NCBI RefSeq assembly: GCF_026625145.1
Contig: NZ_CP113088.1
Span: 2,273,501-2,337,500 of the forward strand
DNA: 64,000 nucleotides
Source of the DNA: Lacinutrix neustonica
GTDB lineage: Bacteria; Bacteroidota; Bacteroidia; Flavobacteriales; Flavobacteriaceae
Direction: 5' to 3'
Within the stretch, counting starts at the first letter, position 1; each line of letters starts with the position of its first letter. The translations under genes and the position numbers were made by a program. Under the pieces are notes generated by a model that did not search any database, was not told where the DNA came from, and saw only the letters and a program-made list of their open reading frames with translations. Shown one piece after another: positions 47,102-63,855 of the stretch.

Positions 47102-47254
47102 TTAATTTGTGTCAGAAGTACGTATACTAACAGGCCTGCGAAATCCGGAACCACTATTAACTTTTAGCATTGTGTGTTCAGAAAGTTCCACAATAGTTGT
47201 TTTCATAAAAATAGGAGAATTTGAAAGTGATTTTTTTTCTTGAGTTGTTTTCAT
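47102..47254 (-). CDS. GG-leader precursor peptide, degenerate leader
   Basis: 50 residues starting MKTTQEKKSLSNS, with a second MKTTIVELSE at residue 17 that could be the true start. The double-glycine site is altered to VNSGSG, and the tail is GFRRPVSIRTSDTN, without Cys. It belongs to module 1, on the strand opposite its regulator. A decaying copy is possible. Confidence 0.5.
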   Translation of the reverse strand: MKTTQEKKSLSNSPIFMKTTIVELSEHTMLKVNSGSGFRRPVSIRTSDTN

Positions 47255-47369
47255 AATATGGAATTTTAAATAATAAGAATGTCTTTAGAAAGTCAACTTA
47301 ATTAGAGTCAACAGAGTTGTTTATTTATATATAAACGGTGAACTACTATGTCTTGTACTAATCGTTTCA

Positions 47370-47538
47370 TCAGAGGTTTTGGCCAGATCCAACGATCATC
47401 CTAGTATTTGATTCACTTAGCTTTGTACCGGAACCACCTAAAATCTCCTTCAGGTTTGGAGCATTTAATTCAATGATGGTTTGTTTATTTATTTTTGAGT
47501 GTTTTGCTATAAATCGTTTTTGTTTGAGATGTCTTCAT
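47370..47538 (-). pseudogene. GG-leader precursor, frame broken in an A-run
   Basis: ATG at 47538 gives MKTSQTK, then the frame shifts in the run CAAACAAAAACG. Removing one A gives RFIAKHSKINKQTIIELNAP, NLKEILGGSG and a core TKLSESNTRMIVGSGQNL. The leader then fits the family, so this is either a homopolymer read error or a recent pseudogene. Confidence 0.55.
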
Positions 47539-47664
47539 AGTATAAAACAAACGAAATTTACGATTATTTTTAATTTGTAATTAAATGGGATGTATAAACA
47601 CTAGTATAACGTATCGTTCTGAAACAATCTTTATGCTCTATTATAGGGGGGTACTTAGTTTGAT

Positions 47665-47847
47665 TTAGTGAGCAATACTTTTAGGTCTTGTACTATGTGT
47701 TGCCCCCGTACTACCTCCTAATGTACCTCCATTAATCTCTTTTAAATTTGAATCATTTAATTCAATAATAGAATATTTTAAAAAAGAAATTTTTTTGCTT
47801 TGCATTATTTTTTTTTGGTTAGGAAAGTCTGCTTGAATTGTTTTCAT
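47665..47847 (-). CDS. GG-leader precursor peptide, divergent to regulator 1
   Basis: 60 residues. The N-terminus is extended (MKTIQADFPNQKKIMQSKK) before the standard FLKYSIIELNDSNLKEINGG. The core TLGGSTGATHSTRPKSIAH is rich in Ser/Thr but has no Cys. It starts 170 bases from the start of regulator 1, so the two share a divergent promoter region. Confidence 0.75.
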   Translation of the reverse strand: MKTIQADFPNQKKIMQSKKISFLKYSIIELNDSNLKEINGGTLGGSTGATHSTRPKSIAH

Positions 47848-48016
47848 TTTAAGAGGGATTATAAAATTAATGTTTTGGTTAAATAAAAGATTAGTTTTTA
47901 TATATTCAATCTTTCAAAACAAAGATATAGGATATGTGTATTCAGTTAAAGTAACTACACCCTGTTTTTATAAAAACACTTTTTTTATACAGTAAATAGC
48001 TTAAAATCAAACAATT

Positions 48017-49762
48017 ATGTCTCTTAAAACATTCTTAAAAAACAAGATATTTTACCATAAGTGTTTTCGTATACTGTCATTATCCCTTCTAATTACCGTT
48101 TGTTTTAGTGTTGATGCTCAAAACCAACAGCTAAAAGATTCCATTAAGAAATACATCTATAATAATAGAGAGAAAACAGAATATTTTAATAAACAGTTGT
48201 TTACTTTAAGTGAAAGCAAAAATAACGAAGAAGATTTAAGTTGGTCTTATATGATCTATGCAATCATGCACGAACTGTCGAATGACTTGGATAGCACTGT
48301 ATTTTATTATCAAAAGGCATTAGATAGGTCTTCGACTCCTTCAGATATTATAGATTACACTTATAGTATAGGTGTTATTTATGAAGCAAAACGGGATTAT
48401 GAAAGAGCATTAAGACTTTATAATGAAGCATTATCAATAGCATCAGAAAATAATTTAGAAAGTAAAAAAGAAGACATCAGACTTTCAATCACGTCTATAA
48501 GAAATAAGGTTAATGGAACTTTAGAGTCTATCACACAACTTTTAGCCGCTTACGATAAATATGCCGATGATAAAACTTCCATTAGATATATTAGAAAAAA
48601 ATTAATTGATGGTTATGTCGCTAACAGTTTATACGATAAAGCATTAATACATATTGAGGAGGGGTTAAAACAAGCTTCGGAAGAAAATAACTCAGAATAT
48701 TTATACTATTTGAATGAACTTAAAGGAAAGTGCTATTTAAATAAAAAAGAGTACAAACGTAGTCATGAAGCTTTAGAAATTGCAATAAAACATGCTAATA
48801 TACTAGACAATGAATTGTTTTTAGATAATACTAATTATGTGTTAGCAGAAGTTAAAAATAGACAAAGAAAAACGAAAGAATCTATTGTTTTAATAAAAAA
48901 TATTTTACAGCGGGAAGACGAAAAATCATCCGAAGAGCGCTATAAATATTATAATTTACTTGCAGAAAATTACAAGTTGTTAGACAGTAGTGATGTGTCG
49001 AATACGTATTATAAAAAATCGATTAAAGAAAGAGAAAAAGCATCCATTGAAAGAATAGAAACATTAGAAAAAATTTACAAAATTTCGTTAGGCGAAGAAA
49101 TTACAGAGACTAAAGAGCAAAAAACTAAAAAAAAGTACTGGATTATTGCTTTTGTAATACTACTATTTACCGCAATAGTATTGTTTTTTAGATATATAAA
49201 AATAAAAAGAAAGGATCAAATCGCTTTCGATGCGCTTTTTAGAAAAGTTAAGGATTATGAAAATAAATCAGCCCACTTAGATATAGATCTGGTTATTAAA
49301 GATCTTTCCAAAAAGGCTAATAGTGAAGCTAAAAAATTAAAGGTTGAGACAGCTGAAACCAAAGAAGCCATTTCAAAAACCAATAGATTTGTCTTGGATA
49401 AAGCAAAAGTTGGTAAGATTCTTAAAAAAATTAAAAAATTAGAACAAGAGCATTATTTTTTAAGAAAAGACTGCAACATGCATAATATGGCTAAAGCATT
49501 AGGCACAAACACTTCATATTTGTCTAAAATTGTAAATGAACACCTTAATAAATCGTTTAGTAAGTACATAAATGATTTAAGAATCGACTATGCAGTTGTT
49601 GAATTAAAAAATAGTAGTCGATTAAGAGCTTATTCGGTAGCAGCAATTGCTGAAGAATTTGGTTATAAGAATGCAGATTCCTTCTCAAGTTACTTTAAAT
49701 CGGTAACAGGTATCACGCCTTCTGTTTATATAAAAAAGATTAAAAGCATTAGAACTTCTTAA
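48017..49762 (+). CDS. Module 1 regulator: TPR sensor with membrane helix and AraC-type HTH
   Basis: 581 residues. A basic N-terminus and signal or anchor (residues about 18-36, ending VDAQ) are followed by TPR-like helical repeats (residues about 55-340, e.g. STVFYYQKALDRSS, RDYERALRLYNEALSIA, SLYDKALIHIEEGL), one membrane helix YWIIAFVILLFTAIVLFF (about 373-390), and a C-terminal AraC-type DNA-binding domain (MHNMAKALGTNTSYLSKIVN ... IAEEFGYKNADSFSSYFKSV). The layout implies an envelope sensor tied directly to DNA binding. It is flanked by a divergent GG-peptide and a downstream GG-peptide array. Regulation of these peptides is inferred from position. Confidence 0.85.
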   Translation: MSLKTFLKNKIFYHKCFRILSLSLLITVCFSVDAQNQQLKDSIKKYIYNNREKTEYFNKQLFTLSESKNNEEDLSWSYMIYAIMHELSNDLDSTVFYYQKALDRSSTPSDIIDYTYSIGVIYEAKRDYERALRLYNEALSIASENNLESKKEDIRLSITSIRNKVNGTLESITQLLAAYDKYADDKTSIRYIRKKLIDGYVANSLYDKALIHIEEGLKQASEENNSEYLYYLNELKGKCYLNKKEYKRSHEALEIAIKHANILDNELFLDNTNYVLAEVKNRQRKTKESIVLIKNILQREDEKSSEERYKYYNLLAENYKLLDSSDVSNTYYKKSIKEREKASIERIETLEKIYKISLGEEITETKEQKTKKKYWIIAFVILLFTAIVLFFRYIKIKRKDQIAFDALFRKVKDYENKSAHLDIDLVIKDLSKKANSEAKKLKVETAETKEAISKTNRFVLDKAKVGKILKKIKKLEQEHYFLRKDCNMHNMAKALGTNTSYLSKIVNEHLNKSFSKYINDLRIDYAVVELKNSSRLRAYSVAAIAEEFGYKNADSFSSYFKSVTGITPSVYIKKIKSIRTS

Positions 49763-49793
49763 GTATAATAAAGCTTTCAACTTTCCATTATAG

Positions 49794-49809
49794 GATTTTT
49801 ATAAAAATC
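49794..49809. promoter_or_regulatory. Perfect 16-bp palindrome upstream of array 1
   Basis: GATTTTTATAAAAATC, self-complementary, between the regulator 1 stop and the array 1 promoter-like element. Similar palindromes occur at 47964-47977 (GTTTTTATAAAAAC, before regulator 1) and 53775-53794. Possibly an operator; an AT-rich chance palindrome cannot be excluded. Confidence 0.35.
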
Positions 49810-49838
49810 TAGTTTTCTATATTTTATGAAAACCGGGA

Positions 49839-49879
49839 GTCTTCACTTGCACAACACTTTTTTTTAAAATTACTTTGAC
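49839..49879 (+). promoter_or_regulatory. Array 1 promoter-like element (TTG-N20-TTACTTTG)
   Basis: TTG at 49847-49849 and TTACTTTG at 49870-49877, spaced 20 bases, fit the Bacteroidota -33/-7 promoter layout (TTG and TAnnTTTG). The 41-base block starting GTCTTCACTTGCACA is repeated at 53797-53837 with three differences. It lies 258 bases before the first precursor of array 1, leaving a long 5' leader with nothing else recognisable. Confidence 0.65.
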
Positions 49880-50134: not shown

Positions 50135-50278
50135 ATGAAAACACAAAAAAACAATTTACAATTTCACACAGCGACAATTTTAGAAATAAATGACAGCACT
50201 TTAAAAAGTGTGGATGTAGGAAGTAACCTTGGTGCCATTTTGCAAGCACTTTCTATAGGTACTGTAGCATTAATGTAA
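50135..50278 (+). CDS. GG-leader precursor peptide, variant cleavage site
   Basis: 47 residues. Leader MKTQKNNLQFHTATILEIND is typical, but the double Gly is replaced by VDVGS. Core NLGAILQALSIGTVALM is hydrophobic, without Cys. First gene of array 1. Confidence 0.65.
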   Translation: MKTQKNNLQFHTATILEINDSTLKSVDVGSNLGAILQALSIGTVALM

Positions 50279-50452
50279 AAAGAATAAAATATGGTGATTC
50301 TTAAAAAGTAGCAATAGAGGCTAAAGTCATCGACTTAATCCATTTACAAACATGAGCTTATCTATTTACAATAACGAGAATTACCAACAGTGGACCGCTT
50401 TGTGGCACTATAAATACACAAAGCACTTTTATTAATATAAATATTAAACATT

Positions 50453-50596
50453 ATGAAAACACAAAACACAAACTTAAGCTTTAGCAAAAACACAATGGTA
50501 GAATTAGATGAGGATCAATTATTAGCAATTGAAGGAGGAAGTTTGGGGGCCTTTGCCTTAGGCGTTGCTCTTGGAATTCTATATGAATTAGTATAA
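50453..50596 (+). CDS. GG-leader precursor peptide, hydrophobic Gly/Ala core
   Basis: 47 residues. Leader ends ELDEDQLLAIEGG. Core SLGAFALGVALGILYELV has no Cys and contains small-residue spacing like the GxxxG packing motifs of unmodified two-peptide bacteriocins. Confidence 0.75.
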   Translation: MKTQNTNLSFSKNTMVELDEDQLLAIEGGSLGAFALGVALGILYELV

Positions 50597-50644
50597 TAAT
50601 AACAAAACATAAATTGTAACAACAACAATAAAACACGAAATATT

Positions 50645-50794
50645 ATGAAAACACAAAACACACAAAATAAATTAGATTTTAGAAAGGGGTCAGTTACCGA
50701 GTTAAGTGATCAAGAGATACTTGCCATCGAAGGAGGCACCGCATTCGCAGCTGGATTTGCGATTGGTCGAATTATTTCAAAAATCATTCAATAA
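50645..50794 (+). CDS. GG-leader precursor peptide, hydrophobic Gly/Ala core
   Basis: 49 residues. Leader ends ELSDQEILAIEGG. Core TAFAAGFAIGRIISKIIQ is amphipathic and cationic at the end. It is adjacent to the similar 50453 gene, so the two could act as a pair. Confidence 0.75.
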   Translation: MKTQNTQNKLDFRKGSVTELSDQEILAIEGGTAFAAGFAIGRIISKIIQ

Positions 50795-50934
50795 GGATTA
50801 AAAATCATTCAATAAACCTGAACAATAGCTTTATTGTTCAGGTAATTTATTTCTAGTAGTCAAATTATATTAAAAGCCTAGTGTAAAACGATTAGAAAAC
50901 AGTACCCGACAAGCGAAAACAACAAACAAACAAG

Positions 50935-51063
50935 ATGAGAACACAAAATAAAAATTTAGAATTCACACAAAAGACCCTTTTGGAGTTAAATGACAATAAT
51001 TTACTAACCATTAATGGAGGAGGGAGCACAAACCTTTTTATAGAGTCATGTATTAGCTATTAA
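50935..51063 (+). CDS. GG-leader precursor peptide
   Basis: 42 residues, start MRTQNKNLEF instead of MKTQ. Leader ends TINGG, core GSTNLFIESCISY with one Cys and several Ser/Thr. Confidence 0.75.
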   Translation: MRTQNKNLEFTQKTLLELNDNNLLTINGGGSTNLFIESCISY

Positions 51064-51074
51064 AACATAACATT

Positions 51075-51212
51075 ATGAAAACAAAAACAAAAGAATTAGA
51101 ATTTCGTGTTCATTCTGTAGTTGAGATACATCAAAACGAGTTATTAGAAATTAACGGAGGCTCTTCATGTGTATGCAGCGTCCCTACAATAATTAAAACA
51201 TTAGTATTATGA
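51075..51212 (+). CDS. GG-leader precursor peptide with CxC core
   Basis: 45 residues. Leader MKTKTKELEF ... ELLEINGG. Core SSCVCSVPTIIKTLVL has two Cys near Ser, which would suit thioether chemistry if a synthetase exists. Its stop overlaps the next ATG by four bases (ATGA). Confidence 0.78.
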   Translation: MKTKTKELEFRVHSVVEIHQNELLEINGGSSCVCSVPTIIKTLVL

Positions 51213-51340
51213 AAACACAAAACAACACATTAGATTTCAAGACAAGCACAGTTTTTGAATTAAAAAAGAATGAAATGCTAAAAATCCATGGAGGATCTTC
51301 GGGTTATTTGTGCGATTTGTTTGAGTTACGGCTTAATTAG
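51209..51340 (+). CDS. GG-leader precursor peptide
   Basis: 43 residues. Leader MKTQNNTLDFKTSTVFELKK ends KIHGG. Core SSGYLCDLFELRLN. Last gene of array 1, overlapping the previous gene by four bases and followed by a terminator. Confidence 0.78.
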   Translation: MKTQNNTLDFKTSTVFELKKNEMLKIHGGSSGYLCDLFELRLN

Positions 51341-51351
51341 GCTTCCTAATC

Positions 51352-51384
51352 AAAAAACCCAACGCATTGCGTTGGGTTTTTTAT
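51352..51384 (+). terminator. Terminator closing array 1
   Basis: AAAAAACCCAACGC, loop ATT, GCGTTGGGTTTTTT. The same hairpin with loop ATA closes array 2. Confidence 0.92.
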
Positions 51385-51423: not shown

Positions 51424-51582
51424 CTACTGTTGCATATTTGTTGTAGTACCACCACCATTAGCTTCGCCAGTACCTGATGGAGTTAAAGTATTACAATTTG
51501 TAACCGTTGTGAGTCTAATATTTAAACTCGTTTCTCGAACACCACCATTAACAGTTAAAGATTTTTGTTTTTTAGATTTCAT
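51424..51582 (-). CDS. GG-leader peptide with drastically shortened leader
   Basis: 52 residues. MKSKKQKSLTVNGG lacks the central ExLN helix of the other leaders, as if about 17 residues were deleted. The core is long and Thr/Asn-rich with one Cys (SLNIRLTTVTNCNTLTPSG) and contains a second NGGG. Confidence 0.6.
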   Translation of the reverse strand: MKSKKQKSLTVNGGVRETSLNIRLTTVTNCNTLTPSGTGEANGGGTTTNMQQ

Positions 51583-51645: not shown

Positions 51646-51825
51646 CTAATTTGATTGATTTGTAGCAATAGTTGTCGTTCTTATCTCTATATGGCAATTT
51701 GTTGAATTTTGTCCCACTTCTGCAGCTGTAACAGTTCCTCCAATAATGGATAGAGATTGTTGGTTGTTAAGTTCTGTAATAGATAGTTTTGCGAAAAATG
51801 ATACTTTTCCTTTTTTACTTTTCAT
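51646..51825 (-). CDS. GG-leader precursor peptide, divergent to regulator 2
   Basis: 59 residues. Leader MKSKKGKVSFFAKLSITELN ends SLSIIGG. Core of 29 residues with one Cys (TVTAAEVGQNSTNCHIEI...) and many Thr. It starts 190 bases from regulator 2 on the opposite strand. Confidence 0.75.
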   Translation of the reverse strand: MKSKKGKVSFFAKLSITELNNQQSLSIIGGTVTAAEVGQNSTNCHIEIRTTTIATNQSN

Positions 51826-52014
51826 AATTAGGTGTTATTATAGTTACTCAATTATCAAATATAAATTAATTTGAGCTTTCTAATGCGTTGAATTTGACCC
51901 TATTTATAAAAAAGGATCATTAAAAAGGGTGTAAATAATCCCTCTCCTAATAGTAATAAAGTTTTTATAAAATGTATTTTTACAACATCTACTATAAATA
52001 ACCACCCTGATTAT

Positions 52015-53724
52015 ATGGCTTTTAAAAATAAATCAGCATTTCTATTTTTAGCTATTTTATTCGTAATAGTTGCATCTTGTAAAAAGGAGGATCTTTTTAA
52101 GGAAGAAAACCAACACTATCGAGATCAAATAAAAAAAACGATTTACAATAATCCTAATAAAGCAATAACGCTATCTGATAGTTTTCTAATAAAAAGTAAA
52201 TCAATAAATAATGTTGAAGGGATAATTTTATCTAACACATACAAAGCAGTAGCATACGATGTATTAAATATTCTTGATAGTACGATTCATTACTATAAAA
52301 AGACATTAAAAAGCATCGATAATCCAATCGATATTATTCAATATAAATATAGTATTGCACGTATTTATGAAAGGCAATACAAATACCAAAACGCATTAGA
52401 TATATACATAGAAGCCTTAATACTCGCTAAAAAGAAAAATTTTATTAGTGTTATAGAAGTCTTACGTTCTGCCATAAAAGAAATCGAGTATATATTGCTA
52501 GACAATGAAAAAGCACTTCATCTTTATTTAGTTAGATATAATGAGACCAAAGGAAAGATAGGTAACACAGACTTGAAATTTAATCGTAAAAATTTAATAC
52601 AAGCTTATTTAAAAGCGAATAAAATAGACGCGGCTTTTAATTTGATTAAAGAAGGCATCCTTGAAGCCGATGATAATAAGAATCTAGAATTTCAGTATTA
52701 CCTATATGAATTAGAGGCTAGGGCTTACATTAAAAAACAAGAATTACTTTTGGCAATTAATTCTATACATGAAGCTACAAAAAAAGCAATACTATTAGGC
52801 AATATTGGTTTTCAAAACGAAGCAAAATATACAACTGCAGTAATAAAAGGAAAACAAGGAAAGTATGATGAGCAAATTGAATTATTAAAAAGTATAATAG
52901 AAAAAACAGCTAAAAATAAGACAGCGCAACTGACAAAATATTATAAACTATTAGCAGAAGCATATAAATCTTTAGGAGAAAATGATCTACATATAAATTA
53001 TAGAGACAAATATGATGCTGGATATTCAAAAATTTCTAAAGAGAAATCCAAAATAATAAGTAACATTCATAAGGTTTTTCTTGAAGAAGAAAAGCAAGAG
53101 ACAAAGCAACAAATACTAAAAAAATGGTATTGGGTTACTGCTTTTATAGTATTATTTTGTGTTTCTACTTTTGTTTATTTACGAAATAAGAAGACACAAA
53201 AAAGAAATAAAAAACTGTTTAATGAGTTGATGCTAAAAGTTGATGCCTACGAAAAAGAAAACGTCCCAGTAGTAGAAAACACAAAAAGCAAGATAAAAGG
53301 TGATGAGGTTAATAGTGTTGCTCATGAAGCACTTGATGAAGAAACATCCTCAATTTATATTATTGACGATGAAAAGGTTAATGAGATATTGGTAAAACTT
53401 AAAAACCTGGAAGACCAGCAGTATTTCTTGCGTCAGGATTGCACTTTACACAACATGGCAAAACGATTAAAGACCAATACGTCTTACCTCTCCAAAGTCG
53501 TTAATAACCATTTAAATAAAACATTTAGCACCTACATTAATGAGCTAAGAATTAACTACGCTATTATAGAATTAAAAAAGAACAAACAGCTACGCGCGTA
53601 TTCTACTAAAGCCATTGCTCAAGAATTAGGCTATAAAAAAGCGAATTCTTTTTCTAAATATTTTAAAGAAGCCACAGGTATTACTCCTGCAGTCTATATT
53701 AAGAATATAAAAGAGTTGTCTTAA
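52015..53724 (+). CDS. Module 2 regulator: TPR sensor with membrane helix and AraC-type HTH
   Basis: 569 residues, paralogous to regulators 1 and 3. The N-terminal signal ends IVASC, a lipobox, so the N-terminus may be lipid-anchored. TPR-like repeats fill residues about 50-330 (HYYKKTLKSIDNP, YKYQNALDIYIEALILAKK). The membrane helix is WVTAFIVLFCVSTFVYL (about 368-384). The AraC-type domain holds LHNMAKRLKTNTSYLSKVVN and IAQELGYKKANSFSKYFKEA. It sits between the divergent precursors at 51424/51646 and array 2. Which DNA site it binds is not known; the element at 53797 is a candidate. Confidence 0.85.
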   Translation: MAFKNKSAFLFLAILFVIVASCKKEDLFKEENQHYRDQIKKTIYNNPNKAITLSDSFLIKSKSINNVEGIILSNTYKAVAYDVLNILDSTIHYYKKTLKSIDNPIDIIQYKYSIARIYERQYKYQNALDIYIEALILAKKKNFISVIEVLRSAIKEIEYILLDNEKALHLYLVRYNETKGKIGNTDLKFNRKNLIQAYLKANKIDAAFNLIKEGILEADDNKNLEFQYYLYELEARAYIKKQELLLAINSIHEATKKAILLGNIGFQNEAKYTTAVIKGKQGKYDEQIELLKSIIEKTAKNKTAQLTKYYKLLAEAYKSLGENDLHINYRDKYDAGYSKISKEKSKIISNIHKVFLEEEKQETKQQILKKWYWVTAFIVLFCVSTFVYLRNKKTQKRNKKLFNELMLKVDAYEKENVPVVENTKSKIKGDEVNSVAHEALDEETSSIYIIDDEKVNEILVKLKNLEDQQYFLRQDCTLHNMAKRLKTNTSYLSKVVNNHLNKTFSTYINELRINYAIIELKKNKQLRAYSTKAIAQELGYKKANSFSKYFKEATGITPAVYIKNIKELS

Positions 53725-53774: not shown

Positions 53775-53794
53775 GTCGTTTTTATAAAAATGAC
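53775..53794. promoter_or_regulatory. Imperfect 20-bp palindrome upstream of array 2
   Basis: GTCGTTTTTATAAAAATGAC, self-complementary except one pair, just before the array 2 promoter-like element. It resembles the palindromes at 47964 and 49794. Confidence 0.35.
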
Positions 53795-53796
53795 AG

Positions 53797-53837
53797 GTCT
53801 TCACTTGCACACTCCTTTTTTTTAAAATTACTTTGAC
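53797..53837 (+). promoter_or_regulatory. Array 2 promoter-like element (TTG-N20-TTACTTTG)
   Basis: TTG at 53805-53807 and TTACTTTG at 53828-53835. The block is identical to the array 1 element in 38 of 41 positions. It lies 164 bases before the first precursor of array 2. Confidence 0.65.
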
Positions 53838-54000: not shown

Positions 54001-54198
54001 ATGAAAACACAAAATAAAAACAAACTAGAATTTAGTAAAAGCACAATATCTGAGCTTAATGACAAAAAATTAAAAGAAATTAATGGAGGAACAGCTAGTG
54101 GTCAAACAGATTTCTTTACTTCTGAGCCATGTATGGTTGCTGTATCTATAACTACTTCTTATAGAGATCCTTTTCAAGGAATAGGAGTGGGTAACTAA
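54001..54198 (+). CDS. GG-leader precursor peptide
   Basis: 65 residues. A consensus leader MKTQNKNKLEFSKSTISELN ends LKEINGG. Core TASGQTDFFTSEPCMVAVS continues with SITTSYRDPFQGIGVGN; one Cys, Thr/Ser-rich. First gene of array 2. Confidence 0.82.
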   Translation: MKTQNKNKLEFSKSTISELNDKKLKEINGGTASGQTDFFTSEPCMVAVSITTSYRDPFQGIGVGN

Positions 54199-54218
54199 TT
54201 TTAAAAAACAGAAACTTT

Positions 54219-54398
54219 ATGAAAAAACAAAACACTAAAAATCAGCTAAGCTTAGAAAAAAAGGATGTTGTAGAGCTAAATCATATTAGTCTAAACGAAA
54301 TAAAAGGGGGTACGACAGTCACTTCATTCCCAAATTTAACTACAATAATCAATTTTTCAAAAGATACTTTATGTACATCAGATAATCAACAACAATAA
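54219..54398 (+). CDS. GG-leader precursor peptide, LCTSD family
   Basis: 59 residues, start MKKQNTKNQL. Leader ends NEIKGG. Core begins TTVTSFPNLTTIIN and ends SKDTLCTSDNQQQ. The TLCTSD ending is shared with the corrected peptide at 61781. Confidence 0.78.
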   Translation: MKKQNTKNQLSLEKKDVVELNHISLNEIKGGTTVTSFPNLTTIINFSKDTLCTSDNQQQ

Positions 54399-54415
54399 TA
54401 ACAAAACAAAATATT

Positions 54416-54589
54416 ATGAAAACACAAAATGTGAACAAACTAGAATTTAGTACAAGCACAATATCTGAGCTTAATAACAATAAGTTAAAAGAAATAAAGG
54501 GAGGTACGCATACTTCACTCCCAAGTGATATTAGATGCACTTTTTTAGTTACAAGTAGTGGTGGTACAAATTACACAATAAGAAAGTAA
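54416..54589 (+). CDS. GG-leader precursor peptide
   Basis: 57 residues. Leader MKTQNVNKLEFSTSTISELN ends KEIKGG. Core THTSLPSDIRCTFLVTSSGG continues with TNYTIRK; one Cys. Confidence 0.78.
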   Translation: MKTQNVNKLEFSTSTISELNNNKLKEIKGGTHTSLPSDIRCTFLVTSSGGTNYTIRK

Positions 54590-54601
54590 TAAAAATAAAT
54601 T

Positions 54602-54748
54602 ATGAAAACACAACACAAGAAACTGGCATTTAAAACAAAAGCAATAGTTGAACTCCAAAACGATGATTTACATTCTATAAATGGGGGAACAGCTACAACA
54701 GTTATAGTAGGACCAACAAGCCTTTTTACCAGATTAATTACTAAGTAA
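54602..54748 (+). CDS. GG-leader precursor peptide without Cys
   Basis: 48 residues. Leader ends LHSINGG. Core TATTVIVGPTSLFTRLITK is Thr-rich, Cys-free and cationic at the end. Confidence 0.76.
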   Translation: MKTQHKKLAFKTKAIVELQNDDLHSINGGTATTVIVGPTSLFTRLITK

Positions 54749-54764
54749 AACGAAATAATATTTT

Positions 54765-54956
54765 ATGAAAACACAAAACAATAAGCAATTATCTGTGCGT
54801 AAGCATTCAATAGTAGAATTAAATAATCTTCAATTAGTGCAGGTTAACGGGGGCACAGTATCAATTACGACATATTTTTCTCCGCCTTATATAGATGAAG
54901 CTATAAGACAATCTTCATTACCATGCCAGGATAACATATTTCAGGATGGTTTTTAA
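54765..54956 (+). CDS. GG-leader precursor peptide with IFxDGF tail
   Basis: 63 residues. Leader ends LVQVNGG. The core has one Cys and ends SLPCQDNIFQDGF. The C-terminal IFxDGF is shared with the peptide at 56146. Confidence 0.8.
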   Translation: MKTQNNKQLSVRKHSIVELNNLQLVQVNGGTVSITTYFSPPYIDEAIRQSSLPCQDNIFQDGF

Positions 54957-54996
54957 GGGTTATTTATTTTTAAATGAATTTAATATTTAAACAATT

Positions 54997-55846: not shown

Positions 55847-55860
55847 TATATATATACATT

Positions 55861-56058
55861 ATGAAAAAACAAGAATCAAACAAATTAGATTTTACAAAAA
55901 AAAGTATAGTAGAACTAAACGAAGGACAATTAATGGAGGTCGATGGTGGGACTTCTCCTATTTGTATCATAGCTATTGCATCATCAGTGAAGTGCGTAGG
56001 AATAGGTGTTGCTAGTATAGCTCTTAGTTATAATATAACTAGAGATCAACAGAAATAG
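55861..56058 (+). CDS. GG-leader precursor peptide, hydrophobic core
   Basis: 65 residues, start MKKQESNKLDFTKK. Leader ends MEVDGG. Core TSPICIIAIASSVKCVGIGV continues with ASIALSYNITRDQQK; two Cys about ten residues apart in a hydrophobic helix-like stretch. Confidence 0.78.
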   Translation: MKKQESNKLDFTKKSIVELNEGQLMEVDGGTSPICIIAIASSVKCVGIGVASIALSYNITRDQQK

Positions 56059-56145
56059 AGTCCATGAGTCTGAATTTTATAACGTTTTGATCTATACTAT
56101 CACAAATCAAAATACGATACAAGTTAAATTTTCAAAACACAAATT

Positions 56146-56343
56146 ATGAAAACACAAAACACAAATAAATTAGAATTTATTAAAAGAGATTTACTAGAGT
56201 TGAACGATAGTCAGTTACTTGATGTAAATGGAGGAAGCACACCAACTACTTTGTTTTGCTCGATAATAATAGTATCAATTATAACAACTATTCCAGGAGA
56301 CCAAGGTCCAACGGGTGATGTTATTTTCGAAGATGGGTTTTAG
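56146..56343 (+). CDS. GG-leader precursor peptide with IFxDGF tail
   Basis: 65 residues. Leader MKTQNTNKLEFIKRDLLELN ends LDVNGG. The core holds one Cys and a Ile/Thr-rich stretch, then GDQGPTGDVIFEDGF. Last gene of array 2. Confidence 0.8.
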   Translation: MKTQNTNKLEFIKRDLLELNDSQLLDVNGGSTPTTLFCSIIIVSIITTIPGDQGPTGDVIFEDGF

Positions 56344-56375
56344 TAAAATTTAATAAACGTTAACTAATAACAACA

Positions 56376-56406
56376 AAAAACCCAACGCATAGCGTTGGGT
56401 TTTTTA
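56376..56406 (+). terminator. Terminator closing array 2
   Basis: AAAAAACCCAACGC, loop ATA, GCGTTGGGTTTTTT, almost identical to the array 1 terminator. It also faces the convergent tatA gene. Confidence 0.92.
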
Positions 56407-57386: not shown

Positions 57387-57569
57387 CTATTCATTATTCA
57401 TTATTAGATTGTTTCCAAGACATAACCAAGTGGTTTCAATTGGAGGCATATGACTCTGTATGGCAATACTTGTTTCACCACCTCCTTTTATATTGTAAAG
57501 AGATACGTCGTTAAGTTCTGTAATGTTCTGCTTGTTAAATGTCAATTTTTTGTTTGCTTGAGTTTTCAT
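57387..57569 (-). CDS. GG-leader precursor peptide, divergent to regulator 3
   Basis: 60 residues. Leader MKTQANKKLTFNKQNITELN ends YNIKGG. Core GETSIAIQSHMPPIETTWLC then LGNNLIMNNE; one Cys. It starts 214 bases from regulator 3, on the opposite strand. Confidence 0.78.
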   Translation of the reverse strand: MKTQANKKLTFNKQNITELNDVSLYNIKGGGETSIAIQSHMPPIETTWLCLGNNLIMNNE

Positions 57570-57782
57570 ACTTAAAAGGTTTATTTATAGATTAATTAAT
57601 TGTCTCTAACAAATATGGCTATTAATTCTTATTACCCCAAAAATAATAAGCTGCGATTTATAAAAAAAAAGAATTGCTTTATTGTTTTAACGCTATAAAA
57701 ATCAGTGCTTTACGTAGATTTATGAATTAAAAAAAAAAACGTAATTTTACAATTGAAATTTAGTCCATAGATCCCCTCGCTA

Positions 57783-59585
57783 ATGAAAAGTAAATTGTTT
57801 TTCTTCATTTTTTCCTTGTTATTTTTTAGTCACCCTATATTTTGCCAAGAGAGTACGGCGTCCACAGGGGATTCAATAAAAAAATACATTTATAACAATC
57901 GAGAAAAAGCAATTGTTTTCAGTCATAAATTTCTCAAATTAAATAAGGCTAGTAATAATACAGAAAATATAATATTGGCGTATTCTGTTTTGGCCTTTTC
58001 TCACGAGTCAATGAATCAAATTGACAGTACTCTTTATTATTATTATAAGAAGTTAAGCTTGGTTGATAAGCCGATAGACATTATCAAAAACAAGTATTTT
58101 ATTGCTCGAATATATGATAACAATTACGATTACAACGAAGCCTTAAGGCAGTATAGCCAAATTATTGATTTAGCAAAGAAAGAGAAAAATGACACTGTTG
58201 TAGAGGATATGAAATTTTCAATTGAGCTGCTAAAAACGAAAGTGGGACTTAATAGAGATGGCCTCTCTAAAGAGGCGTTTAATTATTTAAAAGAGACCTA
58301 CCTTAAGCAGAAAAACAGTAATAACATAATACTTCTTAGATATAATAGGAAAAGTCTTATTGAAGTGTATTTAAATGAAAATGATATTACCGAAGCGATT
58401 CGGCTAATAAATGAGGGAATAGAGGAGGCCAATCATAAGAAAAATGTGCTTTTTCTCTATTATATGTATGATTATAGATCAAAAAGCTACTTAAAATTAA
58501 AAGACTTAAATAGCGCGGAAAAGGATGCTAATTTAGCCATGGAGTATGCTTTACAGCTTAAAAATGAGGTGTTCAAAAATGAAATTAACTACAGGTTAGC
58601 TGATATTGCTTTTGAAAAGAAACAATATAAGGAAGCGCTTAACAATTTAAAAAAGATACTTAATAATAAAAAAAGCAGTAAATCTGCACTTCAATCTTCG
58701 AAATACTATAAGTTAACAGCGAATGTTTATAAAAATTTAGACAGTATTCGGCTATCCAATACATTCTACTCTCAATATATGGATGCAAGAGAGAAAGCGA
58801 CTCAAGAATATTTATCTGCCATTCAAAGTATTCACGATATCACACTCAAAGAAGAGCTTTCAGATATTCAAAACACCTATGAAGAAGAGCTTTTGGGAGA
58901 AATTTCTGAAAAAGAGAAATATAAAAAAACCAAATGGTTGTGGGTTTTTATTAGTGCAATACTCTTATTGTTTATGGTTGGGGTATTCATGTTCTATAGA
59001 CAGAAAGCCATTAAGAATCAAAGTCGTTTTGAAGATTTAATGATAAAAATTCGAGCTTTCGAACAGCGAAAGGCTGAAGAAAACAAACCTGTTTTAGAGC
59101 ATAAGAAGCAGATAGAACCGGTGTTAGAAGAAGAACCTATAGAATCACGTCAAGTCCTAGAAAACACGGAAGTAAAAGCGCTATCTTCCTCGCCAAAGGC
59201 TGAGGAAGCAGAAGCGACGTACGTTATCGATGATAAAAAAGTAGAAGAAATACTTATTAAACTTCAAAAACTTGAAGAGAAACAATATTACTTGCGCCAG
59301 GATTGTACATTACATAATATGGCCAAAAAACTTAAAACCAATACATCTTACCTTTCGAAAATAATAAACACACACTTAGATAAATCTTTTAGTACATATA
59401 TAAACGAACTTCGAATCAATTACGCGATTCTCGAGTTAAAAAATAACAAGCGATTACGTTCGTATTCTGTTAAAGGTATTGCGGGAGAAATGGGATATAA
59501 AAATGCAGATGCTTTTTCAAGATATTTTAGAGACGCTACAGGGATTACCCCATCTGTTTACATTAAAAAGATCCAAGAAATATAA
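57783..59585 (+). CDS. Module 3 regulator: TPR sensor with membrane helix and AraC-type HTH
   Basis: 600 residues, closest to regulator 2 in its C-terminus. Signal peptide ending PIFCQ, then TPR-like repeats (STLYYYYKKLSLVDKP, YDYNEALRQYSQIIDLAKK, DLNSAEKDANLAMEYALQL), the membrane helix WLWVFISAILLLFMVGVFMF (about 382-401), a charged Glu-rich linker about 50 residues longer than in regulator 1, and the AraC-type domain (LHNMAKKLKTNTSYLSKIIN ... IAGEMGYKNADAFSRYFRDA). It faces the largest array. Confidence 0.85.
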   Translation: MKSKLFFFIFSLLFFSHPIFCQESTASTGDSIKKYIYNNREKAIVFSHKFLKLNKASNNTENIILAYSVLAFSHESMNQIDSTLYYYYKKLSLVDKPIDIIKNKYFIARIYDNNYDYNEALRQYSQIIDLAKKEKNDTVVEDMKFSIELLKTKVGLNRDGLSKEAFNYLKETYLKQKNSNNIILLRYNRKSLIEVYLNENDITEAIRLINEGIEEANHKKNVLFLYYMYDYRSKSYLKLKDLNSAEKDANLAMEYALQLKNEVFKNEINYRLADIAFEKKQYKEALNNLKKILNNKKSSKSALQSSKYYKLTANVYKNLDSIRLSNTFYSQYMDAREKATQEYLSAIQSIHDITLKEELSDIQNTYEEELLGEISEKEKYKKTKWLWVFISAILLLFMVGVFMFYRQKAIKNQSRFEDLMIKIRAFEQRKAEENKPVLEHKKQIEPVLEEEPIESRQVLENTEVKALSSSPKAEEAEATYVIDDKKVEEILIKLQKLEEKQYYLRQDCTLHNMAKKLKTNTSYLSKIINTHLDKSFSTYINELRINYAILELKNNKRLRSYSVKGIAGEMGYKNADAFSRYFRDATGITPSVYIKKIQEI

Positions 59586-59672
59586 AACATAGATTTTATT
59601 TCAACCTACTGATTTACAATTGTTTAATAAAAAAAAAGCACTGTTTTTTTTATAAATTGTTGGCTACTTCGT

Positions 59673-59703
59673 TTGGATGTTACTTTTATTTGAGATTACT
59701 TTG
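59673..59703 (+). promoter_or_regulatory. Array 3 promoter-like element (TTG-N20-TTACTTTG)
   Basis: TTG at 59673-59675 and TTACTTTG at 59696-59703, again 20 bases apart as in arrays 1 and 2, although the surrounding sequence has diverged. It is 339 bases before the first small gene of array 3; a weak hairpin (AACAG ... CTGTT, about 59769-59790) and nothing else is visible in between. Confidence 0.55.
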
Positions 59704-60041
59704 GGACAAGAAAGAGAACAGTTCTAATAATTTTACTCAAGCATTTTTAATTATTAGACATAAAAAAAACAGAGCTCTGTAAAGCCCTGTTAATTTTGAA
59801 AACACAAATTTTCATGTATTCCGTGTCCGTCAACATTGAATACTCTACAAATATATATTTTTTTTGTGTCATCACAAAGGATATTATATCTCAAGAGTAC
59901 TTCACTACACTTTTCGGAATACAAGATTAAAATAAGATTTAGCTTAAGGCTTAACCGCGCTTGAGTTGAAGAACTGATGAACGCTTCATTTTAGTTAGTA
60001 ATCAGTTCTTTACAATATTAGTTTAATTAAAATTTTGAAAA

Positions 60042-60523: not shown

Positions 60524-60703
60524 ATGAAAACACAAAAACACAAATTAGCATTTAATAAAAATGCAATCACAGAGCTTACAGACTCAGAAATAAACTCAGT
60601 TAATGGAGGCTGTCAATGGGGAGATTCATCGGGTGCTACCGTAACCATTAGAATTACCATAGTAGACAACCCAACACCAGTTTTTACCATTATACTCTAT
60701 TAA
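60524..60703 (+). CDS. GG-leader precursor peptide, family A (CQWGDSSG)
   Basis: 59 residues. Leader ends NSVNGG. Core CQWGDSSGATVTIRITIVDN then PTPVFTIILY; the first core residue is Cys. Nearly duplicated at 62000, including the 5' flank. Confidence 0.8.
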   Translation: MKTQKHKLAFNKNAITELTDSEINSVNGGCQWGDSSGATVTIRITIVDNPTPVFTIILY

Positions 60704-60719
60704 AACAAAAAAGACAACC

Positions 60720-60905
60720 ATGAAAACACAACGTACAAAGTTAGTATTTGAAAAACAAACATTAGTTGAACTCCAAAATGACGATTTAGTAGCTGTTAGA
60801 GGAGGGACCTCTATTTATCCAAGCTCTATAATAACAATTGCCGAATTAACGAAGCAAATTACACAAGGAGGCGGAGAAGATAGTGGTGTAACCAGAGAAT
60901 TGTAA
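60720..60905 (+). CDS. GG-leader precursor peptide, family B (IAELT)
   Basis: 61 residues. Leader ends VAVRGG. Core TSIYPSSIITIAELTKQITQ then GGGEDSGVTREL, no Cys. A damaged relative lies at 62425. Confidence 0.78.
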   Translation: MKTQRTKLVFEKQTLVELQNDDLVAVRGGTSIYPSSIITIAELTKQITQGGGEDSGVTREL

Positions 60906-60932
60906 TTGAGACACTTTTATATGAGCCATAAT

Positions 60933-61082
60933 ATGAAAACGCCAAGAGCACCATTAGTATTTAGTAAAAGTATCATTACAGAGCTTACGAACTCAGAATC
61001 AAAATTAGTTATAGGGGGTTCTGCAGACCTAATTGAAGATATACTTGTAGCAACAACCTATGGCACATGGTTGTTTCACTAA
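60933..61082 (+). CDS. GG-leader precursor peptide, family C (TYGTW)
   Basis: 49 residues, start MKTPRAPLVFSKS. Leader ends LVIGG. Core SADLIEDILVATTYGTWLFH, no Cys. Related to the peptide at 62735 through ATYGTW/TTYGTW. Confidence 0.75.
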   Translation: MKTPRAPLVFSKSIITELTNSESKLVIGGSADLIEDILVATTYGTWLFH

Positions 61083-61252
61083 AAAGGAAGACTCTTATAG
61101 TATGCATTAATAACCTCATATGATTTTCAATCTATGGTCATTTTTCTAACGTTCTTAACTGGGAGAACAGTTGATGTACTATAAACGCGATCAAGGACAT
61201 GTTAACTTTTTTTAATCCTTAACCTTAGTCATTAAAACAAAACTATATAATT

Positions 61253-61447
61253 ATGAAAACACAAAACAAAAGCGCATTAGAATTCACAAAACACGCAATT
61301 TCAGAGCTAAATCAAGATCAAATTAGCAAAATCAATGGAGGTACTCTTTCAATAACTCCCAACGGAGGAAGCATTAGCTGCTCTTTTTGTATCAACAGCA
61401 GTAACGGAGCAGGAACGGTTATAATAAGAGATCTTTTGCAAGCGTAA
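61253..61447 (+). CDS. GG-leader precursor peptide with CxxC core
   Basis: 64 residues. Leader MKTQNKSALEFTKHAISELN ends SKINGG. Core TLSITPNGGSISCSFCINSS continues with NGAGTVIIRDLLQA; Cys pair CSFC in a Ser-rich context. Confidence 0.8.
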   Translation: MKTQNKSALEFTKHAISELNQDQISKINGGTLSITPNGGSISCSFCINSSNGAGTVIIRDLLQA

Positions 61448-61590
61448 TTAGCGACCTTAAAAGCACTCATGACGTGCACGCTTGAAAACGGCTAAAAGAA
61501 GTAGAAAACACTCCAAAAGAGGTTAAACACCTTAGACTATGGAGCAGTTATAACAGAAACAAAATTTATAATCCTAAAACAACTTTAATT

Positions 61591-61758
61591 ATGAAAACAC
61601 AAAAGAAAAAAACGGAATTAAACTTTGCTAAAAGCGAAATTGTAGAATTAAATAGAGGCGATCTAAATGCAGTATTTGGAGGAACATTTAGTACCAATTC
61701 AGAAAGTGGGCCGCTTTGTGATATGGCAGACATTATAATAAAAGCATTTACTAGATAG
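61591..61758 (+). CDS. GG-leader precursor peptide
   Basis: 55 residues, start MKTQKKKTELNFAKSE. Leader ends NAVFGG. Core TFSTNSESGPLCDMADIIIK then AFTR; one Cys. Confidence 0.78.
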   Translation: MKTQKKKTELNFAKSEIVELNRGDLNAVFGGTFSTNSESGPLCDMADIIIKAFTR

Positions 61759-61780
61759 TATATAATAGAACCGTAATATC

Positions 61781-61958
61781 ATGAAAACAAAAGCATTAAA
61801 ATTAGCATTTGATAAGCATTCTATTTCAGAATTAAATACAAATACCCTTCAACAAGTTAAGGGAGGTACCATATTAACTTCACGGATTAACAAGGTCAAT
61901 ACAAATACCAACAGTGAACTATTCAACAAACACACTATGTACTTCAGATGCTAAATAG
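61781..61958 (+). CDS. GG-leader precursor peptide, LCTSD family, broken at the CCNGA motif
   Basis: Leader MKTKALKLAFDKHSISELNT ends QQVKGG. As printed TCACGG (about 61879-61884) shifts the frame; TCAGG (coding-opposite CCTGA) gives core TILTSGLTRSIQIPTVNYST and the ending NTLCTSDAK, matching the peptide at 54219 (DTLCTSDN). The paralogue match is direct evidence that the printed base is wrong. Confidence 0.72.
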
Positions 61959-61999
61959 CACGAGAAGACAATACAATTAATTATTAAAAACCATTTATT

Positions 62000-62179
62000 A
62001 TGAAAACACAAAAACACAAATTAGTATTTAGTAAAAATGCAATCACAGAGCTTAGCGACTCACAATCTCAGTCAATTCATGGAGGCTGCCAATGGGGAGA
62101 TTCATCCGGAGCGACTGTAACGATTAAAATATCTATTATAGATAACCCAACGCATGTTGAAACCATTATTTTATATTAA
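62000..62179 (+). CDS. GG-leader precursor peptide, family A copy
   Basis: 59 residues. Leader ends QSIHGG. Core CQWGDSSGATVTIKISIIDN then PTHVETIILY, a near copy of the peptide at 60524; the untranslated flank AATTAATTATTAAAA and CCATTTATTATG is copied too. Confidence 0.8.
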   Translation: MKTQKHKLVFSKNAITELSDSQSQSIHGGCQWGDSSGATVTIKISIIDNPTHVETIILY

Positions 62180-62191
62180 AAAAAGAAAATT

Positions 62192-62395
62192 ATGAAAACA
62201 CAAAACAACAAATTAGTATTTAGCAAAAGCTCGATACTAGAATTACAAAGCTCAGATTTATTAAATATTAATGGCGGTTCTACAATAGTAGGAGGAGATA
62301 CTTGCACGGGATGTATGTGTGGTGCCACCCAAACTATTTTAACGGCAGGTAATAAATCAATAGTTATGCCTACGCAAATTGAAGTAGCCATGTAG
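62192..62395 (+). CDS. GG-leader precursor peptide with three-Cys core
   Basis: 67 residues. Leader ends LNINGG. Core STIVGGDTCTGCMCGATQTI then LTAGNKSIVMPTQIEVAM; CTGCMC is the most Cys-dense core of the window. It is inserted between the copies of families A and B. Confidence 0.8.
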   Translation: MKTQNNKLVFSKSSILELQSSDLLNINGGSTIVGGDTCTGCMCGATQTILTAGNKSIVMPTQIEVAM

Positions 62396-62424
62396 ATTTT
62401 AAAAAATCTCAAATTTTAATTCTT

Positions 62425-62598
62425 ATTAAATTACACAAAACAAAACAGGTATTAGAGACACGTACTATAGTTGAACTTCAAAAGGAAGCACTCCTTTTAG
62501 TTAACGGCGTGACAGTGACGACCTCTATAAACATTGCAGAATTAACAGAACAAATAACCTGTGGCAGTGGCGAAGACAGTTGTGTAACTAGAAGATAA
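62425..62598 (+). pseudogene. Family B precursor copy with lost ATG and GG
   Basis: From an ATT at 62425 the frame reads IKLHKTKQVLETRTIVELQK and LLLVNGV, then TVTTSINIAELTEQITCGSG and EDSCVTRR. This is the peptide at 60720 with ATG changed to ATT, GG changed to GV, and two new Cys. Probably decaying, unless ATT is used as a start. Confidence 0.6.
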
Positions 62599-62734
62599 CT
62601 AATTTAAAAGGCAATAGAGGATCCTGGTTACGCATATAAAATGGCGTGCCGGACTCTATGCCTAAAAGGTTAAAACGGATTACCCCTTTGTTCACCAAGG
62701 ATTAAATCAAAATTAATTTTTAAAAATAACGACT

Positions 62735-62890
62735 ATGAAAACACAAAATCAAAACGTATTGTTTAATCATAATTCAATTGTCGAATTAAACGATAGAGAC
62801 ATTAGTAAGATCCATGGAGGTTCTTCTGAGGTCATTGAAATTATTACAAGAGCGGCCACTTATGGGACATGGTTCGATTTTGGACTGTAA
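62735..62890 (+). CDS. GG-leader precursor peptide, family C copy
   Basis: 51 residues. Leader MKTQNQNVLFNHNSIVELND ends SKIHGG. Core SSEVIEIITRAATYGTWFDF then GL. It keeps the ATYGTW of the peptide at 60933. Confidence 0.78.
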   Translation: MKTQNQNVLFNHNSIVELNDRDISKIHGGSSEVIEIITRAATYGTWFDFGL

Positions 62891-62909
62891 TAAAACACCC
62901 TTTTAAATT

Positions 62910-63071
62910 ATGAAAACACAAACAAATAAACCAAGATTTCACAAAAAAGCCATAGTAGACTTAAATACTTCTCAAATGGTTTCTATTAAAGGAGGGAGTA
63001 CCACTTTTTTTGTGGATTGGGTGCAAAATCAAATAGATGAAGCTAAGGAGGACATGTCTCCCTATATATAA
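62910..63071 (+). CDS. GG-leader precursor peptide without Cys
   Basis: 53 residues, start MKTQTNKPRFHKKAI. Leader ends VSIKGG. Core STTFFVDWVQNQIDEAKEDM then SPYI, acidic and aromatic. Confidence 0.75.
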   Translation: MKTQTNKPRFHKKAIVDLNTSQMVSIKGGSTTFFVDWVQNQIDEAKEDMSPYI

Positions 63072-63248
63072 TGGGGGCTATTGGGGCGTAACAAAAATTA
63101 AATTTCAATAAACAGCTTTAACAGAATTGAACGTTAGAACGTTATTGGTCGTTTAAAGCCAAGGAGCAACAGAACCCTTCTTTTCTTTTGTAGCAACTCT
63201 TACCAACTAAAAAGCATCACAAATTTCTCATTAAACAAATGCAATATT

Positions 63249-63422
63249 ATGAAAACACAAAACAAAAAATTAGACTTCAGTAAAAATTCTGTTTTAGAAT
63301 TAAACGATCAACAATTAACAGGGGTTGCCGGTGGAGGTGAATCTGTAGGAGTAACGATTTCTTTTCACGAAGTTACCAGTTGGTATTTGCCAGCATTTAG
63401 TCTTATTCTTGAAATAGGATAG
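63249..63422 (+). CDS. GG-leader precursor peptide, family D copy 1
   Basis: 57 residues. Leader MKTQNKKLDFSKNSVLELND ends GVAGG. Core GESVGVTISFHEVTSWYLPA then FSLILEIG, no Cys. First of three tandem copies. Confidence 0.8.
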   Translation: MKTQNKKLDFSKNSVLELNDQQLTGVAGGGESVGVTISFHEVTSWYLPAFSLILEIG

Positions 63423-63457
63423 GGGATTAAAGTAATCATTAAAACAAACGCAATATT

Positions 63458-63634
63458 ATGAAAACACAAAACACAAAATTAGACTTCAGTAAAAATTCTA
63501 TTCTAGAATTAAACGATCAACAATTAACAGGGGTTGCCGGTGGAGGTGAATCTGTAGGCATTACCATTTCTTTCCACGAAATTGATGGTTGGATTATTCC
63601 AATTCCAGTCATTAGTTTTATTCTAGATCTATAA
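63458..63634 (+). CDS. GG-leader precursor peptide, family D copy 2
   Basis: 58 residues. The leader is nearly identical to copy 1, but the core has diverged after the first residues: GESVGITISFHEIDGWIIPI then PVISFILDL. Confidence 0.8.
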   Translation: MKTQNTKLDFSKNSILELNDQQLTGVAGGGESVGITISFHEIDGWIIPIPVISFILDL

Positions 63635-63681
63635 CAGATCTATAACAGATTATAACAACAATTAAAACCAAACGTAATATT

Positions 63682-63855
63682 ATGAAAACACAAAACAAAA
63701 AATTAGACTTCAGTAAAAATTCTGTTTTAGAATTAAACGATCAACAATTAACAGGGGTTGCCGGTGGAGGCGAATCTGTAGGAGTAACGATTTCTTTTCA
63801 CGAAGTTACTAGTTGGTATTGGCCAGCATTTAGCCTTATTCTTGAAATTGAATAG
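63682..63855 (+). CDS. GG-leader precursor peptide, family D copy 3
   Basis: 57 residues. Same leader as copy 1; core differs from copy 1 only at WYW for WYL and the last residue. No terminator follows before the window edge, so the array may continue. Confidence 0.8.
   Translation: MKTQNKKLDFSKNSVLELNDQQLTGVAGGGESVGVTISFHEVTSWYWPAFSLILEIE

What the first reader, a model, noticed from the sequence alone, without database searches (positions are those of the whole stretch)
47102..63855. Three-module arrays of about 40 diversified GG-leader peptides, each with a membrane-spanning TPR-AraC regulator
The region repeats one design three times: minus-strand GG-precursor(s), a divergent 569-600-residue TPR/transmembrane/AraC regulator, then an array of 6, 11 and 17 plus-strand precursors. 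Leaders are conserved (MKTQN...F.K..I.ELN...L..INGG) and cores are not. Established: GG leaders are removed by C39-type exporters, and Bacteroidota GG-precursors include lanthipeptide-like RiPPs. Inferred: each regulator drives its own array. The scale, modularity and dedicated one-piece envelope-to-DNA sensors make this look like an undescribed peptide-diversification system.
Basis: partly seen in the sequence, partly recalled or inferred. Interest (0 to 1): 0.95.

Follow-up and report, generated by a model that had tools for sequence, protein, structure and literature searches.

The report
Peptide arrays under one shared switch
A flavobacterium carries a 28-kb cluster with about 44 small peptide genes in three blocks, one shared set of enzyme and export genes that likely adds unusual amino acids to the peptides and secretes them, and three membrane sensor genes that are predicted to act through one DNA switch repeated in front of every block.

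Summary
The arrays are real, but the window cuts the locus short. HMM-supported array precursors number 6, 11 and 21; the last 8, and the enzymes, lie beyond the window. Just downstream runs a HlyD / C39-ABC exporter / LanB / LanJ operon. No LanC was found in the genome, and 32 of 38 array cores hold at most one Cys. The products are therefore likely LanB-dehydrated, LanJ-reduced peptides rather than ordinary lanthipeptides. The same operon order is found in seven relatives.

Array cores are not freely diversified: 66 similar cross-genus pairs are seen against 0-4 in shuffles. Private regulons: an operator (TTTATAA, with TTTG ending 55 nt on) lies in 15 of 15 regions downstream of regulators, before 11 of 15 divergent precursors and 7 of 7 enzyme operons, but in only 2 of 15 regions facing the regulators. 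Paralogous regulators keep their DNA-binding domain (66-84% identical) and diverge in the TPR sensor (24-39%).

A conserved, structured, about 340-nt 5' leader RNA without an Rfam match precedes array 3 and marks one regulator clade. Chemistry, ligands and function remain untested.

The parts
47102..47254 (-). weak divergent precursor of module 1
   Evidence: leader HMM iE 0.024, below the cut used for counting; added by eye
47370..47501 (-). divergent GG precursor of module 1, no clean start codon seen
   Evidence: leader HMM iE 1.8e-4
47665..47847 (-). divergent GG precursor of module 1
   Evidence: leader HMM iE 2.8e-7; NF038153 19.7 bits, under its cut-off of 22
47920..47974 (-). operator-promoter unit towards the divergent precursors of module 1
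   Evidence: TTTATAA with TTTG ending at 55 nt
48017..49762 (+). regulator 1, TPR - membrane helix - AraC, 581 aa
   Evidence: HTH_18 E 3.3e-17, TPR matches below cut-off, hydrophobic segment 376-394
49823..49877 (+). operator-promoter unit of array 1 (one mismatch in the operator)
50135..51340 (+). array 1, six GG precursors
51352..51382 (+). terminator-like hairpin after array 1
   Evidence: 14-pair stem and T run
51424..51582 (-). divergent precursor of module 2 with a degenerate leader
   Evidence: leader HMM iE 12, added by eye
51646..51825 (-). divergent GG precursor of module 2
   Evidence: leader HMM iE 1e-13
51856..51910 (-). operator-promoter unit towards the divergent precursors of module 2
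52015..53724 (+). regulator 2, TPR - membrane helix - AraC, 569 aa
   Evidence: HTH_18 E 8.3e-16
53781..53835 (+). operator-promoter unit of array 2
54001..56343 (+). array 2, eleven GG precursors
56375..56405 (+). terminator-like hairpin after array 2, nearly identical to the one after array 1
57387..57569 (-). divergent GG precursor of module 3
   Evidence: leader HMM iE 8.9e-16
57610..57664 (-). operator-promoter unit towards the divergent precursor of module 3
57783..59585 (+). regulator 3, TPR - membrane helix - AraC, 600 aa
   Evidence: HTH_18 E 6e-16; model with mean pLDDT 81.6
59649..59703 (+). operator-promoter unit of array 3
59704..60041 (+). conserved structured 5' leader RNA of array 3
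   Evidence: fold z -4.8, 0 of 100 shuffles; pair counts on six sequences; no Rfam match
60524..63855 (+). array 3, thirteen GG precursors in the window; eight more follow to 65703, then LanJ x2, LanB, C39-ABC and HlyD on the minus strand to about 75.1 kb (window-extended coordinates)

Best explanation
The locus holds 38 array and six divergent GG-leader precursor genes, one HlyD / C39-ABC / LanB / LanJ operon with no LanC, and three TPR-membrane-AraC regulators, and it likely works as one regulon in which the sensors are predicted to act on a single shared operator and the enzymes would dehydrate, reduce and export the peptides. Shown: gene order, domains, no LanC found, the shared operator-promoter unit and its recurrence in relatives, and core families shared between genera. 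Inferred: (1) when the exported TPR part of a sensor meets its ligand, the cytoplasmic AraC part binds TTTATAA sites and starts transcription of arrays, divergent precursors and enzyme operon; (2) LanB glutamylates and dehydrates Ser/Thr of the cores; (3) LanJ reduces some dehydro residues to D-Ala or D-Abu, and with no cyclase and few Cys most products of this genome stay linear; (4) the C39 exporter cuts after GG and secretes a mixture of peptides. Three sensors would give three inputs to one output. The ligands are unknown; the divergent precursors are the candidates.
For: LanB: Lant_dehydr_N E 1.4e-127 and Lant_dehydr_C E 7.6e-40; C39, ABC and HlyD domains. The dehydrogenase matches the one beside ltnA2 and lanM on pMRC01 (LtnJ, named from recall) at 32.8% identity over 100% of its length, E 9e-40. 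LanC-like domain: 0 matches at E<=10 in this genome; none above cut-off in 6 of 8 genomes with the cluster, and in the other two it lies elsewhere. 32 of 38 array cores have at most one Cys. HlyD-ABC-LanB-LanJ order in seven relatives. Operator unit: 15 of 15 regions downstream of regulators, 11 of 15 divergent, 7 of 7 enzyme operons, 2 of 15 facing the regulators; shuffles of 14 regions reach at most 1 where 9 were seen under a stricter form. HTH 66-84% against TPR 24-39% identity among paralogues, 13 pairs. TPR model resembles peptide-binding TPRs, among them NprR, Rap and PlcR.
Against: Nothing here shows transcription, binding or chemistry. LanB, ABC, HlyD and both LanJ have interrupted frames in this assembly, though they are open in relatives and housekeeping genes are interrupted too. 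LanC could be divergent, or the few Cys could react unaided; in F. amniphilum 13 of 23 array cores have two or more Cys. TPR folds are generic, and eukaryotic TPRs score higher. Genome-wide the loose pattern gives 21 hits against 16 in its control, so single hits carry little weight. The unit was noticed by eye in this genome before it was counted.
Confidence: 0.68

Rival explanations
1. Three private regulons: each regulator controls only its neighbouring array and divergent precursor, and the alike operators are a family trait without cross-talk.
For: Regulator, array and leader RNA stay together as a module: the six regulators whose arrays carry the leader RNA form one clade, and 13 of 15 regulators have an array next to them.
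Against: Same operator sequence and exact spacing at all modules and at the single enzyme operon; the HTH parts are much more alike than the TPR parts.
Confidence: 0.2
2. Ordinary class I lanthipeptides: thioether rings form without an enzyme or by an unrecognised cyclase, and LanJ is a minor tailoring enzyme.
For: NF038153 leaders and LanB; many cores have one or two Cys; in F. amniphilum 13 of 23 array cores have two or more.
Against: No LanC-like domain in 6 of 8 genomes and none in the cluster of the other two; 15 of 38 array cores here have no Cys at all.
Confidence: 0.2
3. A decaying locus: frames of the enzyme genes are broken in this strain, so the arrays are relics.
For: LanB, both LanJ, ABC and HlyD have interrupted frames, and several precursors lack a clean start or leader.
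Against: Housekeeping genes of this assembly are interrupted as well, as by sequencing error (read by eye); the three regulators are open and the operators present; near-identical array copies differ mostly at silent sites.
Confidence: 0.08

Closest known systems
Bacteroidetes class I lanthipeptides with LxLxKx5L leaders ending in GG (NCBIfam NF038153; PMC7268733, passages read)
   Same: leader type, LanB, C39 exporter
   Different: no LanC, LanJ present, tens of precursors, shared operator; that survey looked for precursors near LanC-domain proteins, so such clusters would be missed
LanJA dehydrogenases of lacticin 3147 and rodencin (PMC11519912, passages read)
   Same: homologous full-length dehydrogenase next to the dehydratase gene
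   Different: there it works with class II LanM and thioether rings; here with LanB and no cyclase
Prochlorosins and synechococsins (PMC9872173 and PMC10783134, passages read)
   Same: one enzyme set for 29-79 precursors with a common leader
   Different: class II LanM, which carries a LanC domain; precursor genes partly scattered; here three ordered arrays with regulators, and core families shared between genera
RRNPP peptide-pheromone regulators (NprR, Rap, PlcR)
   Different: here a signal-like N-terminus, TPR outside, one membrane helix and a C-terminal AraC domain; other TPR proteins score as high or higher

Membership tests
class I lanthipeptide | LanB dehydratase | tested here: met
   PF04738 E 1.4e-127 and PF14028 E 7.6e-40 in two overlapping frames here, one open frame of 1039 aa in Lacinutrix
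class I lanthipeptide | LanC cyclase | tested here: not met
   0 matches in this genome; none in the cluster in eight genomes; none above cut-off in six of them
class I lanthipeptide | lant_leader_L1a leader | tested here: met
   20 of 35 matches over the cut-off
class I lanthipeptide | lanthionine rings | not testable with these tools
   needs mass spectrometry; 15 of 38 array cores have no Cys
LanJA dehydrogenase | full-length homology to LtnJ | tested here: met
   32.8% over 100%, E 9e-40, with the intact Lacinutrix copy
LanJA dehydrogenase | reduction of dehydro residues to D-amino acids | not testable with these tools
   no assay
LanJA dehydrogenase | zinc ligands | not tested
   alignment A4 made, ligands not assigned
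C39 GG-peptide exporter | C39 peptidase plus ABC domains | tested here: met
   PF03412, PF00664 and PF00005 in two frames here; one open frame of 719 aa in Lacinutrix
prochlorosin-like system | LanM synthetase | tested here: not met
   no LanC-like domain, which LanM carries, anywhere in the genome; no LanM model was run
prochlorosin-like system | cores without shared families | tested here: not met
   66 cross-group core pairs against 0-4 in shuffles
RRNPP regulators | TPR peptide-binding domain | tested here: inconclusive
RRNPP regulators | cytoplasmic protein without a membrane segment | tested here: not met
   internal hydrophobic segment in 16 of 16 regulators

The most novel reading that the evidence does not exclude
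Each regulator and its divergent precursor form a receptor-pheromone pair: the exported, modified divergent peptide is read by the diverged periplasmic TPR domain of its own regulator, and all pairs feed one operator that switches on a shared arsenal of linear peptides with D-amino acids and their enzymes. This would be an outward-facing counterpart of RRNPP quorum sensing, with an undescribed structured leader RNA setting the output of one array.
Probability: 0.3. Interest if true: 0.92.

Novelty: new variant of a known kind. Interest (0 to 1): 0.73.

Why it matters
A LanB + LanJ + C39 system without LanC that would serve dozens of conserved peptides is missed by LanC-centred mining, and could be a native route to many D-amino-acid peptides from one enzyme set. 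The shared operator with diverged sensors makes a question directly testable: how one bacterium links several envelope sensors to one peptide output. The leader RNA is a candidate new RNA family.

Tried and rejected
A short motif in divergent precursors, [ST].[LI]C, was in 16 of 25 divergent against 10 of 114 array cores.

Fast evolution of the divergent core in the Lacinutrix pair (pN/pS 0.97; array cores pN 0.015, pS 0.073) rests on one gene pair, and the ungapped alignment counts two likely small indels as substitutions. Treated as a hint only.

A small ORF inside the leader RNA was rejected as coding: one copy lacks the ATG and another has a one-base deletion in the same stretch.

Sigma-70 type promoter matches do not exceed shuffles (74 against 85). 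The TAnnTTTG form of the -7 element was not found before most precursors. In 14 other LanB loci the unit occurs 0 or 1 times each, 5 loci with one, so I do not extend it to them.

The leader RNA is not the only well-folding leader: Famn_b (z -4.5) and Fla_a (z -4.3, 85 nt) also fold better than shuffles without sequence kinship seen, one of the six kin (Biz_d) gives only -1.5, and arrays 1 and 2 here give +1.3 and -0.8.

Literature: ten searches of the open library listed no paper that by title or abstract describes LanB + LanJ clusters without LanC, such arrays, or TPR-AraC control of them. Passages were read in six papers; no paper was read whole. Subscription papers are mostly not held, so this is weak. 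Caetano et al. 2020 was seen only as a citation in a passage of PMC10352776.

Left out of the core analysis: precursors of L096, L098, L099, L101 and L103, found, were not added to the 139. Copies at contig ends (Fla L052:109; Biz L050:6444 and 6616) may be counted twice.
Full report
CHECK OF THE OBSERVATION. The three-module layout is present. The window is G000:C1:2273501-2337500 of a one-contig 3.9-Mb assembly. All 35 lant_leader_L1a matches at E<=1 fall in this locus, 20 over the cut-off. A leader HMM gives 38 array precursors (6, 11, 21) and 4 divergent ones; two weaker divergent ones were added by eye. The window ends inside array 3. The regulators have an AraC HTH_18 domain (E 3e-17 to 8e-16), weak TPR matches and one internal hydrophobic segment. 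A model of regulator 3 (mean pLDDT 81.6) shows a TPR superhelix, a long helix through the hydrophobic segment, a disordered linker and the AraC domain.

THE MISSING HALF. Beyond the window, on the minus strand, lie two dehydrogenase genes with ADH_N domains, LanB, a C39-ABC exporter and HlyD; M23 and GH3-like genes follow (named by eye). The dehydrogenase is LanJA-like by homology: the intact Lacinutrix copy matches the dehydrogenase beside ltnA2 and lanM on pMRC01. No LanC-like domain was found in the genome. Frames of these genes are interrupted here but open in Lacinutrix; several housekeeping genes of this assembly look interrupted too (by eye).

RELATIVES. Close fused LanB plus LanJ plus arrays occur in Bizionia sp. 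1139 (G363 = G397 by coordinates), Flavobacteriaceae 2-583A (G195 = G398), Lacinutrix venerupis DSM 28755, Lacinutrix 2-990-J, Flavobacterium amniphilum, and two further genomes drawn from its genus, G499 and G580; the contig length suggests that G499 is F. terrae. With this genome there are eight. The order HlyD - ABC - LanB - LanJ is the same in all seven relatives. In 397 sampled genomes of the family 35 have some LanB match, and 3, this one included, have the close one (72% identity or more); neither same-genus genome has any. In 299 sampled Flavobacterium genomes 3 have the LanJ, F. amniphilum included. The system is patchy. LanC: none above cut-off in 6 of 8 (G580 has four weak matches below it); in F. 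amniphilum LanC lies beside a second, distant LanB, and in G499 about 760 kb away.

REGULATION. Upstream of the arrays I saw TTTATAA followed by a -7-like TTACTTTG. With a fixed rule (operator with at most one mismatch, TTTG ending at 54-56 nt) the best hit lies at exactly 55 in 15 of 15 regions downstream of regulators; in two of these (Biz_c, Fla_b) no array was seen. The unit is also in 11 of 15 divergent-precursor regions, 7 of 7 enzyme operons, and 2 of 15 regions read towards the regulators; exact operators at eleven other spacings give 0-4. In dinucleotide shuffles of 14 regions at most 1 region matched, where 9 were seen under the first, stricter form. Genome-wide the pattern with one mismatch gives 21 hits against 16 in its reversed control; the four units of this locus (three arrays, HlyD) are among the 21. 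Paralogues within a genome are 24-39% identical in the TPR part and 66-84% in the HTH (13 pairs). This fits several inputs and one output. Near-identical terminator-like hairpins close arrays 1 and 2. Related TPR-AraC genes lie within 15 kb of LanB in 18 of 35 LanB-bearing family genomes, 0.39 expected by random placement at an assumed 4.2 Mb; at most three regulators were scored per genome and the list was cut.

LEADER RNA. Between promoter and array 3 lies a 338-nt stretch conserved in six modules of five genomes. It folds better than shuffles (z -4.8, 0 of 100); four other copies give z -4.4 to -6.4 and one -1.5. Counts on the predicted structure: 91.4% of cells paired, 9 pairs changed on both sides (5 of 500 shuffles reach this), covariation 0.194 against 0.127 (0 of 500), slid versions 32-43% paired. 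The structure came from the same alignment, and the RNAalifold covariation term was slightly unfavourable (+1.43). No Rfam family reached its threshold. A covariance model finds it in 3 of 397 family genomes, four places, all next to these regulators; those genomes supplied four of the six model sequences. The six regulators that have it form one clade (95/95, 0 of 500 shuffles).

CONCLUSION. It works like a LanB-dependent, LanJ-tailored, C39-exported peptide system with a common switch. It is not filed as a lanthipeptide, because the LanC feature was tested and not met. It is a new variant of a known kind; chemistry and ligands are open.

Noticed in passing
window 56429-56637 (-): A tatA-like gene with an interrupted frame sits between array 2 and module 3.
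   Followed up: partly
G000:C1 about 1661-1680 kb (L009): A second, tandem-duplicated C39 exporter locus with other GG peptides and large repeat proteins.
   Followed up: no
L067-L072, L074: Seven fetched split-LanB clusters, in genomes without LanC, have a LanB - LanB elimination part - TPR-AraC gene row and few precursors; no LanJ was found in those stretches.
   Followed up: partly
L062:11627-12510: Regulator Fla_b has the operator unit downstream but no array; an 85-aa hydrophobic ORF lies there.
   Followed up: partly
L065:17722-18012: One F. amniphilum core combines features of two core families (LPSD and SSNG) and looks like a chimera.
   Followed up: no
window, for example 35446-37318 and 43172-44360: Many housekeeping genes have interrupted frames, which suggests an uncorrected long-read assembly; completeness is given as 84%.
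   Followed up: no
window 13645-14820 (+): A repeat protein that looks leucine-rich, with a C-terminal tail like a secretion sorting domain (by eye).
   Followed up: no
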